33,150 nt of DNA from Oscillospiraceae bacterium (lineage in GTDB: Bacteria; Bacillota; Clostridia; Oscillospirales; Acutalibacteraceae): contig SVPB01000014.1 of NCBI GenBank assembly GCA_015066065.1, positions 1 through 33,150 of the forward strand. The letters are read 5' to 3'. Below, piece by piece: positions 7,356 to 33,150 of this stretch (position 1 is the stretch's first letter; each line of letters starts with the position of its first letter). The position numbers were made by a program, and so were the translations under genes. The notes below the pieces were generated by a model. The model was not told the origin of the DNA, did not search any database, and worked only from the letters and a program-made list of their open reading frames with translations.

Positions 7356-7404
7356 TAAAAAAGAGGACGAAGCGTGCGCTTCGTCCTCTTTTGTTTATTC
7401 TTCC
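7356..7404. repeat. Direct repeat copy 1 containing bidirectional terminator
   Basis: TAAAAAAGAGGACGAAGCGTGCGCTTCGTCCTCTTTTGTTTATTCTTCC; near-identical to 8225-8272. Confidence 0.9.
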
Positions 7405-8224: not shown

Positions 8225-8272
8225 TAAAAAAGAGGACGAAGCGTGCGCTTCGTCCTCTTTTGTTATTCTTCC
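8225..8272. repeat. Direct repeat copy 2 containing terminator
   Basis: Same sequence as 7356-7404 with one T deleted. Confidence 0.9.
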
Positions 8273-16860: not shown

Positions 16861-17727
16861 TCAGTCAGCCCGCCACAGCGCCGTGGCGCCGCAGGGCAGG
16901 GTCATCCCGGTGGCGGTCACCGGCAGACCGATCTCGTCCGCCTCCAGACGACCGCCCACCTTCCGGGGCATCAAAGAGCCCAGCACATACTGCATCACCG
17001 AGGGGCTCAGCCCGGTGGTGTAGGAATTGATGAGGAAAAAGAGGGGGGTATCCGACAACAGCCGTACACAGTCTGCCACCAGAGGGTAGATCTGCTCCTC
17101 CAGCTTCCACACCTCACCCCCGGGGCCGCGCCCGTAGGAGGGAGGATCCATGAGAATGCCGTCGTAGGTATTGCCCCGGCGCAGCTCACGCTGCACAAAC
17201 TTGCCGCAGTCATCCACCAGCCAACGCATGGGGCGGTCGGCCAGGCCGGAGGCCACGGCGTTCTCCCGTCCCCAGGCCACCATGCCCTTGGAGGCATCCA
17301 CATGGGTCACGTGGGCACCTGCCTGCAGACACGCTAAGGTGGCGCCGCCGGTGTAGCCAAACAGGTTGAGTACCCGGATGGGGCGGCCGGCATCCCGGAT
17401 GAGGGATGCCATCAGATCCCAGTTGACCGCCTGCTCGGGAAACAGGCCGGTGTGCTTAAAGCCCATGGGCTTGAGGGCAAACCGCAGGTCACCGTAGGTG
17501 ATCTGCCAGCTGTCCGGCAAAGGACGCAGACGTTCCCATTGTCCGCCGCCGGTGTTGGAGCGATGGTACCGGGCATGGGCCTGCTGCCACCGGGGATCCC
17601 GACGGGGGGTGTCCCACAGGATCTGGGGATCCGGGCGGATGAGCAGGATGTCCCCCCACCGTTCCAGCCGTTCCCCTCGGGAGGCATCCAGCAGTTCATA
17701 GTCTTTCCATTGTGAAGCGGTTCTCAT
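16861..17727 (-). CDS. Class I SAM-dependent methyltransferase (RlmI/RlmK-like)
   Basis: VLNLFGYTGGATLACLQAGAHVTHVDASKG, DGILMDPPSYGRG. Confidence 0.85.
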   Translation of the reverse strand: MRTASQWKDYELLDASRGERLERWGDILLIRPDPQILWDTPRRDPRWQQAHARYHRSNTGGGQWERLRPLPDSWQITYGDLRFALKPMGFKHTGLFPEQAVNWDLMASLIRDAGRPIRVLNLFGYTGGATLACLQAGAHVTHVDASKGMVAWGRENAVASGLADRPMRWLVDDCGKFVQRELRRGNTYDGILMDPPSYGRGPGGEVWKLEEQIYPLVADCVRLLSDTPLFFLINSYTTGLSPSVMQYVLGSLMPRKVGGRLEADEIGLPVTATGMTLPCGATALWRAD

Positions 17728-26892: not shown

Positions 26893-27435
26893 TTATTCCT
26901 CCATCTGCTTACCGAGGAAAGCGGCGGCCACCTGCGCCAGCCGCACGTCCCCTTCCCCGGGGACGGCGCCGCTTTCCGGCTGCAGCAGACACACCGCCCC
27001 GGTCACGTCACCGGAGGCCAGGATGGGCGCCGCCACCCCTGCCGTGCGGTTGATGGCTTCCACCGGCTGCAGAGGATCGGGAGCGCCGGCCTTGGCCACG
27101 TACACCTGCCGCCCCTCCATAACCTCGTCCAGCTGGGCGGATACCCGGCGGTCAATGAACTCCTTGCGGCTGTTGCCGGCGGCGGCGATCACGTGGTCCC
27201 GGTCGCACACCAGCACGGTCATGTTGCAGGCCCGGGCCAGCACGTCCGCATACTGCACCGCAAAAGGGGACAGTTCCCCCACCGGCGAGTATTTTTTAAA
27301 CACCACTTCCCCATCCTTTTCGGTAAAGATCTCCAGCGGATCCCCCTCACGAATCCGCATCGTCCGGCGGATTTCTTTCGGGATAACCACACGCCCAAGG
27401 TCGTCTATTCTACGAACTATTCCTGTTGCTTTCAT
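26893..27435 (-). CDS. spoVT: Stage V sporulation protein T (AbrB + GAF-like)
   Basis: MKATGIVRRIDDLGRVVIPKEIRRTMRIREGDPLEIFTEKDGEVVFKKYSP, GAF-like C-terminus. Confidence 0.94.
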   Translation of the reverse strand: MKATGIVRRIDDLGRVVIPKEIRRTMRIREGDPLEIFTEKDGEVVFKKYSPVGELSPFAVQYADVLARACNMTVLVCDRDHVIAAAGNSRKEFIDRRVSAQLDEVMEGRQVYVAKAGAPDPLQPVEAINRTAGVAAPILASGDVTGAVCLLQPESGAVPGEGDVRLAQVAAAFLGKQMEE

Positions 27436-27446
27436 AATATATAATA

Positions 27447-27504
27447 ATCTCCTTGCTTTACAAATTTGTACTGTTAGTATCTGTAAAACAAGGAGATTTA
27501 TACT
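27447..27504 (-). promoter_or_regulatory. spoVT 5' leader copy 1: hairpin sequestering the SD, preceded by AGTATAAA
   Basis: Minus strand ATCTCCTTGTTTTACA...TGTAAAGCAAGGAGAT (16 pairs, one U-G); SD AAGGAG lies in the 3' arm; TTTATACT (plus) at 27497-27504. Confidence 0.7.
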
Positions 27505-27514
27505 TGTGTTATTT

Positions 27515-28024
27515 CTATTTCAAATTTTCAACACAATTATATTTGTCGTCATAATCTTTCACATTATCAATAATATTAGAATAATCCCAAATATAATTTT
27601 TGATGGAATAATCCTCTAATAAATCCTTCTTCGGAACTTTCATATCACCATTATTATAAACAATAACGGAATTTGATACTCTATAATTGGAATGATAAGG
27701 TGCAGAACCAAAATAATCCGTATACAAAACAAATTCAATTATGTATTTAACATCTTTAAATTCTTCAATGTCAGTTTTCTTTATTTTTATAACCCTGGTA
27801 TTTTTTATTTCAAAATATCTATCTGTTTCCAATTTCATCTTATCATAAATATCTTCCCATTCGGATTTCAATTCTTTTATGGCATCTTCAATCAATTCAT
27901 CTTTAACGCTTTCGCCATTTATGACATCTTCATTCTTTTTGTTTTGAAGACTTTTATCATTATTGCAAGAAGTCAAGCAAAACATAAAAGCAAGTGACAA
28001 AAATACTGCTAAACCTTTTTTCAT
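27515..28024 (-). CDS. Putative lipoprotein
   Basis: MKKGLAVFLSLAFMFCLTSCNN signal peptide with lipobox LTSC. Confidence 0.75.
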   Translation of the reverse strand: MKKGLAVFLSLAFMFCLTSCNNDKSLQNKKNEDVINGESVKDELIEDAIKELKSEWEDIYDKMKLETDRYFEIKNTRVIKIKKTDIEEFKDVKYIIEFVLYTDYFGSAPYHSNYRVSNSVIVYNNGDMKVPKKDLLEDYSIKNYIWDYSNIIDNVKDYDDKYNCVENLK

Positions 28025-28091
28025 TCTATTTTCCCCAATCATAATGGATTTATGATTGTATTATACAACAAATGGCAAATTATTGCAATAT

Positions 28092-28262
28092 CTATTTAGA
28101 TCTCTCCACCACACTATGTATTGCTATACAAAACCTGTTGAAAGGTGTCGATGTTGTCTGTGAGGGGTCCCCCTCCCGAATCCGCATCGTCCGGCGGATT
28201 TCTTTCGGGATAACCACACGCCCAAGGTCGTCAATTCTTCTCACAATACCAGTTGCTTTCAT
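28092..28262 (-). pseudogene. Truncated SpoVT/AbrB N-terminal fragment (56 codons)
   Basis: Translates as MKATGIVRRIDDLGRVVIPKEIRRTMRIREGDP then unrelated SQTTSTPFNRFCIAIHSVVERSK*; 56-nt exact match to spoVT. Confidence 0.8.
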
Positions 28263-28272
28263 ATATAAATCA

Positions 28273-28329
28273 ATCTCCTTGTTTTAGTAATAGTGATACT
28301 ATTATCTGTAAAACAAGGAGGTTTATACT
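28273..28329 (-). repeat. spoVT 5' leader copy 2
   Basis: Arms ATCTCCTTGTTTTA (28273-28286) / TAAAACAAGGAGGT (28309-28322), inner stem TAATAGT-GAT-ACTATTA, TTTATACT at 28322-28329. Confidence 0.8.
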
Positions 28330-28392
28330 TGCCAACTTGCTTTTAGTTTCGCAAACCACAGACCTTAATAGTCAACTTAAAGCACACCGGGG

Positions 28393-29217
28393 TTATATTG
28401 AAATAAATCCTGTATTTCGATACTGGCGTGGTGTTTTTTGTGCGTGGCGCTTAAAAAACACTCTCATTTCAGCGGTGGATGAAAAATTCATCATATCTGC
28501 TATTTCTGCTTCACTGCGGTGTGTGGTGAGAAAATAGCAAAGTCGTTCAAACCGCTTGTCGCTTATATATTTTCTCGGAGTTATTCCGGTTTCTTTGAAA
28601 TATTGCCGCTGGAGGTGTTCCCTTGAAATTTTCATCTCTGCAGCAATTGCAAAAATAGTTGGATTTTTGAGTAAATCTCTTTCTACTATGTTTTGAAAGA
28701 CTGAACTTATTTTTGCAGTTGGTTCATGTGCGTTATCAAGCATTGACACAAGTTTCGGGAAAATGTTTATGCTGGTATCACTATTGTGACACTCTAACAG
28801 CTTTTTACACATCAAATAGATTCCCTCTGGGTTCACACGATATTTTACATCGCTTTCAAGCAGTTCTTTTACCACTTCTCTAACATTGCCGTCTTTAAAA
28901 CAGATTACGACGAACTCCCATGGTTCACTCCCAAGCAAAGGATATCCGTAGCCCGAATTCGACTCGTTGATTATGTTGAAAAACCCCTCTTCCTCATTTG
29001 TGATATATGGCATCCCTTTATATATCACTTCGCCATGTCCTTTGATGGTATAATGAAAAATACAGTGTGTCTCGCTTTTTCGCAATTCTCCCGTCGAGCG
29101 ATAGGATACATCGGTTACTGTCGAATGAAACAGTTGAAACGCCTTTGTCATAGAGCAGGGCGCCCGCTTCGCTTCAATATTCGTTAGCGGAGGGATTTTT
29201 GCAAACATATAGATCAC
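28393..29217 (-). CDS. AraC family transcriptional regulator
   Basis: C-terminal HTH FAIAAEMKISREHLQRQYFKETGITPRKYISDKRF...FKRHAQKTPRQYRN. Confidence 0.85.
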   Translation of the reverse strand: MIYMFAKIPPLTNIEAKRAPCSMTKAFQLFHSTVTDVSYRSTGELRKSETHCIFHYTIKGHGEVIYKGMPYITNEEEGFFNIINESNSGYGYPLLGSEPWEFVVICFKDGNVREVVKELLESDVKYRVNPEGIYLMCKKLLECHNSDTSINIFPKLVSMLDNAHEPTAKISSVFQNIVERDLLKNPTIFAIAAEMKISREHLQRQYFKETGITPRKYISDKRFERLCYFLTTHRSEAEIADMMNFSSTAEMRVFFKRHAQKTPRQYRNTGFISI

Positions 29218-29252
29218 ATCACAAATCGCATAATTATATCACAACCAAGCTC

Positions 29253-29311
29253 TTGATACTGCTATAATTCAGAGTTATACTGAAGTTGTGATATGCAGTA
29301 TTATATCACAA
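29253..29311 (+). promoter_or_regulatory. Promoter plus dyad for the cupin operon
   Basis: TTGATA-N17-TATACT (29253-29281) followed by TTGTGATAT-N8-ATATCACAA (29286-29311). Confidence 0.55.
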
Positions 29312-29343
29312 AAAAACACATATTTCAAGAAGGAGTTTTTATT

Positions 29344-29682
29344 ATGGACATTATGAAAAGCAAAAATATCATTCCTCAACCGTTTGCCAGTTGCCACGAC
29401 GGAGAGGGTACGCTTCTATGCAAATCGCTTCTTGACAACCTTGAAAGCGAAAAATTCAATTTTATGCATTCTGATGATATGCCGGCAGGCGTTTCCATTG
29501 GATTGCACAAACACTTCACCAACGAGGAAATCTATTATCTTGTTTCCGGAAAAGGCATCCTTACATACGACGACAACAAATATGAAATGAAAAAGGGTGA
29601 CATATCACTGTGTAAAATGGGTCATTCCCATGCCTTCGAGGCTGTTGATGATTGTGTTCTTATCGTTGTAGGAAGCAAATGA
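29344..29682 (+). CDS. Cupin-domain protein
   Basis: IGLHKHFTNEEIYYLVSGKGILTYDDNKYEMKKGDISLCKMGHSHAF; SD AAGGAG. Confidence 0.85.
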   Translation: MDIMKSKNIIPQPFASCHDGEGTLLCKSLLDNLESEKFNFMHSDDMPAGVSIGLHKHFTNEEIYYLVSGKGILTYDDNKYEMKKGDISLCKMGHSHAFEAVDDCVLIVVGSK

Positions 29683-29697
29683 TTGGAGGCGTAGCAG

Positions 29698-30684
29698 ATG
29701 ATCAATTTAGGAATCATTGGTTTGGGGGGCATAACCAAGAGCTTGCACATCCCCGAGGTCAACCACAGTGGAAAATTCTACATTAAAGCTGCTGCAGATG
29801 TTTACACGGACAATTCTGTGGCAGAGAAATTTAATATTCCGGATTATTACACCGATTACAGAGAGCTTTTGAAAGATCCTTCTATCGATGCGGTATTGGT
29901 GGCAACACCTCACGACCTTCACGAAGAACACTGTGTTGCCGCTTTTGAAGCCGGTAAACACGTCATTATTGAGAAGCCCATCTCCCGCAATTTGCAGGAA
30001 GCCGAAAAAATTATTGCTGCAGCCCAAAAAGCCGGGACGGTAGGAATGATTGGTTTCTGCGAACGCTTTTATGATGAACACGCATATATCAAAACCTTAC
30101 TTGACAATAAATCACTTGGAAGGCTCCTTAGTGCAAGGATTGACCATTATCAGAATTTCAATCCTCCCCAAAACTCATGGTGGAGAGATGAACAAAGCGT
30201 CGGCGGCGGTGCTGTTATAGGAAGTGGCGTTCACAGACTGGATCTTTTGAGATGGTATTTTGGAGAAGCCGTTTCTGTATATGCCAAAGCGGTGAAGATG
30301 CCCCAGCGACTGAATGCAGAAGCATGTGTCCATGCCGTAATAGAATTTGACTCGGGTGTAATCGCTGATTTTTCTATAAACTGGGCTTCATATAACTATC
30401 TGTACTGTGAAGGACTTTCTATTTCAGGAGAAAACGGACTTGTCGTTACAGTTACAGGACTCACAAACAAGCTTGGACTTGCAGACGTTGACAACGGTAT
30501 GCTGAAAGATTTTACTGCACCACGCAGTCTGACTATGTATGAGCATTTTGCTGAATGTATCGAAACCGGCACGCAACCCCTTACCAGTTTGGAGGAAGGA
30601 TATAAATCCTTGCAGCTTGTTCGCGCTATTTATAAATCTCTCGAAACAGGAACAAGTGTTATTCCCCAAACCGTAACATTCTAA
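29698..30684 (+). CDS. Gfo/Idh/MocA family oxidoreductase
   Basis: LGIIGLGGITKSLHIPEV, DAVLVATPHDLHEEHCVAAFEAGKHVIIEKPIS. Confidence 0.92.
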   Translation: MINLGIIGLGGITKSLHIPEVNHSGKFYIKAAADVYTDNSVAEKFNIPDYYTDYRELLKDPSIDAVLVATPHDLHEEHCVAAFEAGKHVIIEKPISRNLQEAEKIIAAAQKAGTVGMIGFCERFYDEHAYIKTLLDNKSLGRLLSARIDHYQNFNPPQNSWWRDEQSVGGGAVIGSGVHRLDLLRWYFGEAVSVYAKAVKMPQRLNAEACVHAVIEFDSGVIADFSINWASYNYLYCEGLSISGENGLVVTVTGLTNKLGLADVDNGMLKDFTAPRSLTMYEHFAECIETGTQPLTSLEEGYKSLQLVRAIYKSLETGTSVIPQTVTF

Positions 30685-30701
30685 ACACAAAAACGTATAC
30701 A

Positions 30702-30736
30702 AAAAACCGAGGTTGATTACATCTTCCTCGGTTTTT
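30702..30736 (+). terminator. Terminator
   Basis: AAAAACCGAGG...CCTCGGTTTTT. Confidence 0.75.
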
Positions 30737-30793
30737 GCATATAATCGATTTGTGCAAATCGAGTCTAATCAAAAACTGCAAAAGCACTGGTAT

Positions 30794-30868
30794 TTATGCG
30801 GCTTTAAAAGACTTTTGCCCTATTATAACACAAGCCTCTATTCTTCTCACAATACCCGTTGCTTTCAT
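30794..30868 (-). pseudogene. Truncated SpoVT N-terminal fragment (24 codons)
   Basis: Translates as MKATGIVRRIEACVIIGQKSFKAA*; first 10 residues identical to SpoVT. Confidence 0.7.
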
Positions 30869-30933
30869 ATATACATTTCTCCTTAAATTACAAATTGTGA
30901 TGTTTGTATTTGTAATTGGAGGGGATTTATACT
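30869..30933 (-). repeat. spoVT 5' leader copy 3
   Basis: AATTACAAAT (30886-30895)/ATTTGTAATT (30908-30917) stem, AAGGAGA SD on minus strand, TTTATACT at 30926-30933. Confidence 0.7.
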
Positions 30934-30957
30934 GGTAAGAAAACAGGTTTTCAAAAT

Positions 30958-31863
30958 TTAAATTGCAAGCCTTTTACTGTATTTGCTTCTGAAAGCGGAT
31001 GGTGTCATATCGGTTTCGGAAAGAAACTTTCGATTAAACCAAGATATATCACCAAAACCGGCTTCAATACATATTTCCGAAATGCTTTTATCTGTTGTTA
31101 AAAGAAGTTGCTGCGCCTTGTTGATAAAACATTTCATGATATACCTTTTAGGAGAAAGTCCGGTAACCTCGAAAAAGACCTTGCGAAAATTTGAAACGCT
31201 CATATTGCAAGAAGAAGCAAGCGTTTCTACAGACGGTGTATTCGCTTTTTGTACAGCATGCGAAATAATATCAAGAGCAGGGGATATGGTCTGTAATTTT
31301 ACATTTTGCCTAACTTTTAATTTTGGCAGAGGTTCGGAAACACGCGCAAGACAGATAAAAAGCTGATATACATATAGGGCACAAAGTTCCGAATGGTACA
31401 ATGAAGCATGATCCTTTTCCAAAAGTTCCCCAAAAAACTGTTCAACCAAAGCAACAATCTCAGGATACTGCTCCGGAGAAAAGATACCGCAGAGTCCCAT
31501 TTCGTTGTAAATCGCTTGTTCTAACTTAGTCTCGGCCAAAAACCCACCTTTTTTCATAAGTGAGTGCGGATGAAAGGTGAGCCAATACCAGATGCTAGAC
31601 TCTTTTTCACTATTTCTGGATAAATGCTTTTGAAAAGGAAAAATAATCTCAACATCGCCCTTCTTAAAGGCGTATTGCTTATCTTCTACCAGACAGATCC
31701 CTTTTCCGCTGACGCAATAACCAATTTCAAGGCAATCATGATAGTGAAGATATGAAAAATCATTTATTTCAAGGGAAGCAATAATTGGTTTGCCGGAGCC
31801 CATAATCATATCATTGTGGCGTGTATAAAATACCGGCAAGTCATCATTTGAGCGATTTAGCAT
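30958..31863 (-). CDS. AraC family transcriptional regulator with N-terminal cupin-like domain
   Basis: HYHDCLEIGYCVSGKG...; HTH LASSCNMSVSNFRKVFFEVTGLSPKRYI...AGFGDISWFNRKF; start at MLNRS with AAAGGGG SD. Confidence 0.87.
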   Translation of the reverse strand: MLNRSNDDLPVFYTRHNDMIMGSGKPIIASLEINDFSYLHYHDCLEIGYCVSGKGICLVEDKQYAFKKGDVEIIFPFQKHLSRNSEKESSIWYWLTFHPHSLMKKGGFLAETKLEQAIYNEMGLCGIFSPEQYPEIVALVEQFFGELLEKDHASLYHSELCALYVYQLFICLARVSEPLPKLKVRQNVKLQTISPALDIISHAVQKANTPSVETLASSCNMSVSNFRKVFFEVTGLSPKRYIMKCFINKAQQLLLTTDKSISEICIEAGFGDISWFNRKFLSETDMTPSAFRSKYSKRLAI

Positions 31864-31967
31864 ACTTTTTGCCCCTTTACACAAAGAAAAACACAATACT
31901 TTTATGATACAATACTACTATAAACTTATAAATCATACAAGAGTTTTTCTTTTGGAGGGATTAGAAT

Positions 31968-33080
31968 ATGAAAAAAATTGATATCGCCGCATATGTGTGG
32001 CCGGCTTATACCGGTGATGAACCGAGAAGTCGAATTTTTTGGCCGGAGGGGATCGGGGAGTGGCAAACTGTAAAAAACTCCTCTGCAAAATCAAACGGTT
32101 ATCATTGGAACAGAAAACCATTGTGGGGATATGTAAACGAAGCGGATCCATATGTGATGTGCGGACAAATTGAGGCGGCTGTTTCACACGGAGTCAATGT
32201 GTTTATTTATGATTGGTATTGGTATGATAACCGCCCTTTTCTTGAAAACTGCCTGAATGACGGCTTTTTGAAAGCGCCTAATAACAACAAGATGAAATTC
32301 TATATTATGTGGGCAAATCATGATGCAACACATCTGTGGGATATTCGTAATTCCGATTCGGATTCGGTGAGATCTACCATTTGGCAGGGTACTGTAACTC
32401 GCGAGCAGTTTGAGATTATCGGTAAGCGGTGGATAGAACAATACTTTAAGCGTGAGAACTATTACCGAATAGACGGAAAACCCGTTATAAGTATTTATGA
32501 TATTAACAATTTGATAAACGGTTTAGGCGGGATTGCCGAAACTGTCGATGCTTTGCAGTGGCTTAACAAGGAAGCCCAAAAGGGAGGCTTGGACGGTGTA
32601 CATCTGCAATTTATCCGTTGGAACGGGGAAATCAAAAACCATTCCGGCGTTGACGGTAAGCCTGTTGAAAATGAAAGCGCACTTGTAAATACCCTCGGGT
32701 TTAGCTCGGTGACGAATTATCAGTTTGTTCATATGACCGATGTTAACAGAGATTATCTTGATGTGCTTGAAGATGTAAAGAAGCTTTGGAGAGAAATTAA
32801 AGACGAATATTCGGTTTCCTATTTTCCAAACGTATCGGTTGGTTGGGATAATAACCCCCGTCTCAAAAAATATATCACCCCGATAATCACCAATAATACG
32901 CCTGAAAACTTTAAAAAATGCCTGGAATATGCCAAAGAATACTGCGAGCAGGCAGGCGTTCATTTAATCACGGTAAACAGTTGGAACGAGTGGACAGAAA
33001 CAAGTTACTTGGAGCCTGACGATTTTTACGGCTACGGTTACCTTGAGGCAATTAAAGAAGTATTCGGGAAAAATAACTAA
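31968..33080 (+). CDS. GH99-like / WbsX-type glycan-active protein
   Basis: AAYVWPAYTGDEPRSRIFWPEGIGEWQ...FIYDWYWYD...NSWNEWTETSYLEPD. Confidence 0.8.
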   Translation: MKKIDIAAYVWPAYTGDEPRSRIFWPEGIGEWQTVKNSSAKSNGYHWNRKPLWGYVNEADPYVMCGQIEAAVSHGVNVFIYDWYWYDNRPFLENCLNDGFLKAPNNNKMKFYIMWANHDATHLWDIRNSDSDSVRSTIWQGTVTREQFEIIGKRWIEQYFKRENYYRIDGKPVISIYDINNLINGLGGIAETVDALQWLNKEAQKGGLDGVHLQFIRWNGEIKNHSGVDGKPVENESALVNTLGFSSVTNYQFVHMTDVNRDYLDVLEDVKKLWREIKDEYSVSYFPNVSVGWDNNPRLKKYITPIITNNTPENFKKCLEYAKEYCEQAGVHLITVNSWNEWTETSYLEPDDFYGYGYLEAIKEVFGKNN

Positions 33081-33103
33081 AAAGTTTTTATAGCATGCAC
33101 GGC

Positions 33104-33136
33104 AAAAAGCGAGGGGAAATTCCCCTCGCTTTTGCT
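33104..33136 (+). terminator. Terminator
   Basis: AAAAAGCGAGGGGAAATTCCCCTCGCTTTT. Confidence 0.75.
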
Positions 33137-33150
33137 ATGTATCGGTCAAA

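What the first reader, a model, noticed from the sequence alone, without database searches (positions are those of the whole stretch)
27447..27497. Leader hairpin fully sequesters the spoVT Shine-Dalgarno; pairing largely kept in copy 2
In the minus-strand RNA, AUCUCCUUGUUUUACA pairs with UGUAAAGCAAGGAGAU (16 pairs, one U-G), burying AAGGAG. In copy 2 the U-G becomes U-A and an extra inner stem (TAATAGT/ACTATTA) appears, with one mismatch in the outer arm. In copy 3 a different 10-bp stem forms and the SD is only weakly paired. This suggests a selected translational switch (structure-, temperature-, protein- or antisense-controlled) on spoVT.
Basis: partly seen in the sequence, partly recalled or inferred. 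Interest (0 to 1): 0.6.

Follow-up and report, generated by a model that had tools for sequence, protein, structure and literature searches.

The report
Read-through-proof start of spoVT, in cassettes
The hairpin in front of this sporulation gene is real, but the gene's own spore-specific promoter seems to sit inside it, so it most likely silences stray transcripts from neighbouring genes rather than acting as a switch, and it belongs to a series of mobile gene cassettes that keep inserting at the start of spoVT in gut bacteria.

Summary
The 16-pair hairpin at 27447-27497 (minus strand) is far beyond chance (z = -7.9) and buries the spoVT Shine-Dalgarno (SD); copies 2 and 3 are as described. 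The 'translational switch' reading is only partly supported. The 5' arm coincides with the spacer of a conserved forespore-type (sigma-F/G) promoter, GTATA-N17-GATACTA, so mRNA from spoVT's own promoter should start in the loop and lack that arm. Predicted SD pairing is 1.00 in read-through RNA and 0.31 from the predicted start; stems are strongest where a co-oriented gene ends just upstream. Best explanation: a read-through insulator, possibly also a terminator, laid out like the one described for B. subtilis spoIIIG/sigG. The larger find is why it occurs three times: the 5' end of spoVT is the junction of tandem, mostly single-gene, AT-rich cassettes in this genus and about 15 other genera of the family. 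Each cassette gives spoVT a new promoter, leader and first ~10 codons; closely similar cassettes occur in different genera; cargo includes phage-defence genes. No recombinase was found beside the arrays, and no report of them in the papers searched. Promoter use, insulation and mobility are inferred, not measured.

The parts
26893..27435 (-). spoVT, 180 aa; functional copy 1
   Evidence: ORF; Pfam SpoVT_C 2.7e-39 and MazE/AbrB-type N-terminus 1.6e-11
27447..27462 (-). 3' arm of the hairpin, copy 1; contains the SD AAGGAG at 27449-27454
   Evidence: sequence, fold
27482..27497 (-). 5' arm of the hairpin, copy 1; equals the promoter spacer
27499..27503 (-). -35-like element GTATA of the inferred forespore promoter
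   Evidence: motif conserved in 66 of 100 leaders against 1.35 in shuffles; placed at 27475-27503
27475..27481 (-). -10-like element GATACTA; start site inferred a few nt downstream, in the loop (about 27467-27470)
   Evidence: start site is inference
27515..28042 (-). lipoprotein-like ORF (175 aa), sole cargo of the proximal cassette; co-oriented with spoVT and ending 11 bp before the -35 element
   Evidence: no Pfam match
28092..28262 (-). copy 2: truncated spoVT 5' end (33 codons plus tail, 56 aa), class B junction
28274..28286 (-). 3' arm of the copy 2 hairpin
28309..28321 (-). 5' arm of the copy 2 hairpin; the promoter motif spans 28300-28328
28393..29217 (-). AraC-type regulator, cargo of the second cassette, co-oriented with spoVT
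29344..30684 (+). cupin protein (29344-29682) and GFO/IDH/MocA oxidoreductase (29698-30684), cargo of the second cassette
30839..30868 (-). copy 3: first 10 codons of spoVT
30821..30844 (-). class A junction AGAATAGAGGCTTGTGTTATAATA
30886..30895 (-). 3' arm of the weaker copy 3 hairpin
30908..30917 (-). 5' arm of the weaker copy 3 hairpin
30958..33080 (.). distal AT-rich segment running to the contig end: AraC-type regulator (-) and a WbsX-family protein (+)

Best explanation
The inverted repeat is a read-through insulator wrapped around spoVT's own forespore promoter. RNA polymerase with a sigma-F/G type factor starts in the loop, so that mRNA has only the 3' arm and a free SD. RNA running in from the neighbouring cassette gene carries both arms, folds, hides the SD and so does not make SpoVT outside the forespore; the stem followed by a T-rich tail may also terminate that RNA. 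The feature is repeated because it lies in the end of a mobile cassette: tandem AT-rich cassettes insert at about codon 10 of spoVT, and each leaves spoVT with a new promoter, leader and start. Shown by sequence: the repeat, the conserved motif, coupled change of the two arms, the association with gene orientation, and the cassettes in many genera. Inferred: promoter use, start site, effect on translation or termination, and mobility.
For: Strong fold burying the SD. Conserved motif G[T/A/C]ATA-N17-RAYAMTA in 66 of 100 leaders against 1.35 in shuffles, with the 5' arm as its spacer. SD occlusion 0.73 read-through, 0.27 from the predicted start, 0.58 with the promoter segment shuffled. Arm swapping lowers pairing in 2000 of 2000 trials. 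Stems strongest next to co-oriented genes ending within 40 bp (p = 1e-4; 0.008 after removing duplicate arms). Same layout described for B. subtilis sigG (PMC5942855); C. difficile spoVT is transcribed by SigF and SigG (PMC7438776). Cassettes.
Against: No RNA data; the start site is inferred. The orientation test was devised after seeing the ranking and the sequences are related, so its p-values are guides. Some strong stems lie next to a gene read as divergent (L028, L174, L169), some weak ones next to co-oriented genes (L173 copy, L019 first copy). Many leaders have only partial occlusion, including copy 3 (0.66, p = 0.48).
Confidence: 0.6

Rival explanations
1. The hairpin is mainly the intrinsic terminator of the upstream cassette gene, with the SD overlap a by-product of compactness.
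For: Co-oriented genes end 3-36 nt before the -35 element in the strongest cases, and these leaders have more T after the SD (mean 6.0 against 4.1 in 10 nt).
Against: The loop is long (about 18 nt) and the tail is an imperfect T-run; the simple terminator scan did not list it, though that scan only allows loops of 3-8. The swap and occlusion tests concern exactly the SD region.
Confidence: 0.2
2. The inverted repeat is a DNA operator, most simply for SpoVT itself, which is an AbrB-type DNA-binding protein; the RNA pairing is incidental.
For: The dyad straddles the promoter; a repressor site there would be natural. No consensus SpoVT binding site is known (PMC5061766), so it cannot be excluded.
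Against: Arm sequences differ widely between lineages while complementarity is kept, unlike a fixed operator; stem strength tracks the neighbouring gene's orientation.
Confidence: 0.1
3. One reading: a switch (thermosensor, ligand, protein or antisense controlled) on the spoVT mRNA.
For: Strong fold burying the SD.
Against: The inferred start site lies in the loop, so the gene's own mRNA lacks the 5' arm. No credible Rfam match in the region.
Confidence: 0.05
4. The repeat is an arm of the cassette recombination site and has no regulatory role.
For: It lies in every cassette end and travels with the cassettes.
Against: Shared-cassette identity continues past it to codon 10, where the junction falls, about 45 bp away. 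Cassette ends with weak repeats are also widespread. Loci without detected upstream copies also show it (L079 duplex).
Confidence: 0.05

Closest known systems
B. subtilis spoIIIG (sigG) read-through hairpin (PMC5942855)
   Same: Long hairpin covering the ribosome-binding site; the gene's own forespore promoter lies so that its transcript cannot form the hairpin; meant to block read-through from an upstream gene.
   Different: Different gene (spoVT); here the upstream neighbour changes with each cassette, and arms vary while staying complementary.
CIME / ICE-IME tandem accretion (PMC5704250)
   Same: Tandem elements without their own recombinase at the end of a host gene, with the gene end restored at each insertion.
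   Different: Units are mostly single-gene cassettes of about 1-3 kb; no related ICE or IME with an integrase was found; family-wide rather than in one species.
Integron cassette arrays
   Same: Tandem arrays of small, mostly single-gene cassettes at one site, with varied cargo including defence genes.
   Different: No integron integrase nearby; many cargo genes have their own promoter-like sequence; the junction is in the 5' end of a host gene.

Membership tests
spoIIIG-type read-through-blocking hairpin | Hairpin pairs with the ribosome-binding site | tested here: met
spoIIIG-type read-through-blocking hairpin | Own promoter placed so that its transcript lacks the 5' arm | tested here: met
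   At sequence level only: conserved promoter motif whose spacer is the 5' arm
spoIIIG-type read-through-blocking hairpin | Co-oriented upstream gene that can read through | tested here: met
   Window lipoprotein ORF ends 11 bp before the -35; general association
spoIIIG-type read-through-blocking hairpin | Read-through RNA is made and not translated | not testable with these tools
   Needs RNA mapping and reporters
RNA thermometer or riboswitch | The SD-covering structure is in the gene's main mRNA | tested here: not met
   Inferred start site in the loop; not mapped
Intrinsic terminator | GC-rich stem followed at once by a T-run | tested here: inconclusive
Integron | IntI integrase beside the array | tested here: not met
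   No tyrosine recombinase beside the arrays
Integron | attC sites between cassettes | not tested
   Junctions are spoVT 5' copies; attC models were not run
CIME arrays | Tandem elements that restore the end of a target gene and lack a recombinase | tested here: met
CIME arrays | Related ICE or IME with an integrase at the same site | tested here: inconclusive
   None found in 80 related spoVT loci or viral contigs
IS110 elements with bridge RNA | DEDD transposase in the genome | tested here: not met
   0 of 10 genus genomes

The most novel reading that the evidence does not exclude
The spoVT 5' end is the landing site of an integron-like cassette system of gut Oscillospiraceae-type bacteria, moved by a recombinase acting in trans. 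It collects defence and accessory genes, replaces the promoter, leader and first ~10 codons of a sporulation regulator at every insertion, and carries its own read-through insulator so that sporulation control survives each new neighbour.
Probability: 0.3. Interest if true: 0.82.

Novelty: new variant of a known kind. Interest (0 to 1): 0.6.

Why it matters
It turns an apparent mRNA switch into a testable insulation design, in which a sporulation gene stays forespore-specific while its upstream neighbourhood keeps changing. It also points to a recurrent cassette-insertion site across many uncultured gut genera that I did not find described. Finding the recombinase would show how these bacteria share single genes, phage defence included.

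Tried and rejected
Rfam: no credible match in the window's island (best a mir-590 hit far below its threshold) and no match in the cassettes of six other loci. Recombinase beside the arrays: tyrosine and serine recombinases of the genus used as queries found nothing near spoVT in the arrays; one weak hit lay 17 kb away in L019 and one serine recombinase lay 4.4 kb upstream in L035, a locus without detected copies. Some of the serine queries were wrong reading frames, so the serine test is weaker. IS110/bridge RNA: no transposase in the genus. Phage or plasmid carriers: exact junction patterns absent from viral contigs; three of four human-faecal 'phage' hits opened are ordinary complete spoVT genes and the fourth gave no readable start. 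Class A junctions outside the family: two 2-mismatch hits in a 399-genome phylum sample do not adjoin spoVT. RNAalifold of class A ends crashed, a first pattern was wrong, and inspection replaced it. Literature searches on spoVT with integration site, integron, hotspot or cassette gave no description of these arrays. Chimeric assembly: considered unlikely, because the same kind of island with GC-rich DNA on both sides occurs in other assemblies, e.g. G009.

Full report
Check of the finding. On the minus strand, 27482-27497 (AUCUCCUUGUUUUACA) pairs with 27447-27462 (UGUAAAGCAAGGAGAU), 16 pairs with one U-G, covering the SD AAGGAG of spoVT. The leader folds at -26.6 kcal/mol against -7.9 for shuffles (z = -7.9); copy 2 gives -20.1 (z = -5.0) and copy 3 -13.2 (z = -3.8). 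The protein is SpoVT. All three copies lie on this contig, which is the whole of contig 72 of a 1.7-Mb draft genome; there is no further copy.

A promoter lies inside the hairpin. Across 100 leaders of spoVT genes and copies from relatives, a motif G[T/A/C]ATA, 17 nt, RAYAMTA-like -10 reaches the score threshold in 66 against 1.35 in shuffles, nearly always with a spacer of exactly 17. In the window it is GTATA (27499-27503) and GATACTA (27475-27481), so the 5' arm is the spacer. In the whole genome the exact pattern occurs 6 times (the reversed control also 6), and two of the six are spoVT copies 1 and 2. C. difficile spoVT is transcribed by SigF and SigG (PMC7438776), and this genome has a strong sigG homologue, though below the strict curated cut-off. 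The start site should fall in the loop, so the gene's own mRNA cannot form the hairpin. This is inference from conserved sequence; no start site is mapped.

What the hairpin does. Predicted SD pairing averages 0.73 in read-through RNA, 0.27 in RNA from the predicted start and 0.58 when the promoter segment is shuffled; 23 of 65 leaders have p <= 0.05. The window copy 1 gives 1.00, 0.31 and 0.56. Swapping arms among 67 unique leaders lowers pairing in 2000 of 2000 trials (11.21 against 10.18 +/- 0.17). The arms differ between lineages but stay complementary, e.g. CTCCTTATCTTA/TAAGATAAGGAG in L028 and ACTCCTTTGT/ACAAAGGAGT in L033. Stems are strongest where a co-oriented gene ends within 40 bp of the -35 (median -17.8 against -10.4 kcal/mol, p = 1e-4; p = 0.008 after removing duplicate arms), and these have more T after the SD (6.0 against 4.1 in 10 nt). 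The distance grouping was made after the ranking was seen, and the sequences are related, so these p-values are guides; orientation alone gives p = 0.03. In the window the lipoprotein ORF ends 11 bp before the -35, so read-through is expected.

Precedent. In B. subtilis sigG a hairpin of 20+ pairs is proposed to block translation of read-through transcripts from PspoIIG and cannot form in the transcript from PsigG (PMC5942855). The spoVT arrangement has the same layout. I therefore favour a read-through insulator, with termination as a possible second effect.

Why there are three copies. In each of the eight genus genomes where spoVT was found, the DNA upstream is AT-rich (mostly 30-45% GC) while the other side is GC-rich (mostly 55-67%), and in the window and five of its relatives the 5' end of spoVT is repeated one to three times upstream of the real gene. 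The truncated copies stop at one of two points: class A after about codon 10 (AGAATNGA, then GGCTTGTGTTATAATA or a close variant), and class B after codon 33 (GACCC, then a conserved sequence containing TTGACA). The same pattern occurs beyond the genus (L033, L054, L082, L089). The class A junction, with up to 2 mismatches, is in 23 of 300 family genomes and 16 of 135 genera, with no hit for the reversed pattern; one of those hits (L142) looks like chance. Of 27 such places, 23 directly follow a recognisable spoVT 5' copy and two more follow a decayed or interrupted one. A 399-genome phylum sample gave no true junction outside the family.

Cassettes. Thirty-three units between consecutive copies are 0.66-11 kb long, median about 1.5 kb; most hold one gene, usually pointing away from spoVT. 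Cargo includes Abi_alpha, N6-methylase restriction-modification, TIR proteins (one Thoeris ThsB-like), lipoproteins, sugar and oxidoreductase genes and unknowns. Cassettes are shared between genera: L170 and L179 are 95.5% identical over 1,154 bp; L077 and L176 are 82% identical over 1,791 bp while the rest of their spoVT genes is only 58% identical. The L077/L176 identity runs through leader and start codon and stops at about codon 10. So the unit that moves includes the promoter, hairpin and first ~10 codons, and each insertion re-heads spoVT.

What is not known. No recombinase was found beside the arrays, IS110 is absent from the genus, and exact junctions are absent from viral contigs. Candidates are a recombinase acting in trans, including the genus's conserved Xer-like protein, decay of an unseen ICE/IME, or homologous recombination between the ~130-bp repeats. 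I cannot choose among these. Class A ends carry an extended -10-like TGTTATAAT, a conserved stem-loop with loop C(G/T)(C/T)ATAAA(C/T)ACT and often a terminator-like AAAAGCGAGGTGAATTTCACCTCGCTTTT; whether this is a small RNA or a recombination site is open.

Verdict. The hairpin is real and its pairing looks selected; it works most like the spoIIIG read-through hairpin. Its setting, a family-wide series of cassette arrays at the 5' end of spoVT, is the more surprising result.

Noticed in passing
window 27436-33150 and L013-L019, L033, L054, L082, L089, L169-L188: Tandem AT-rich gene cassettes at the 5' end of spoVT in at least 16 genera of the family, with phage-defence genes among the cargo; the recombinase is unknown.
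   Followed up: yes
window 30740-30844; L089, L016, L017 and others: Class A cassette ends carry TGTTATAAT, a conserved stem-loop with loop C(G/T)(C/T)ATAAA(C/T)ACT and often a terminator-like hairpin: a possible small RNA or recombination site with no Rfam match.
   Followed up: partly
window 28092-28262; L054 7943 and 9049, L082 7602, L186 1068: Class B truncated copies keep an intact AbrB-type DNA-binding domain (56-60 aa) with their own promoter, SD and a tail that looks conserved as protein (LTxxxxFxxAIHSxxxRYK); could compete with SpoVT if expressed.
   Followed up: no
L013 ~1880-1960, L016 ~17430-17510; also L033, L069, L074 leaders: A GC-rich REP-like palindrome (GTAGGGCAGGGG...CCCCGCCCTAC) is inserted between the promoter and SD of several spoVT leaders.
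   Followed up: no
window 7356-7395 and 8225-8264: An exact 40-nt terminator-like repeat (AAAGAGGACGAAGCGTGCGCTTCGTCCTCTTTT) brackets an 869-bp segment with a helix-turn-helix ORF and another small ORF; possibly another inserted unit.
   Followed up: no
L015 and L018, within about 100 bp upstream of spoVT: In G004 and G007 the functional spoVT leader lacks the usual promoter motif and contains the class A type stem-loop (AACCC.CATAAATACTGGG) instead.
   Followed up: no
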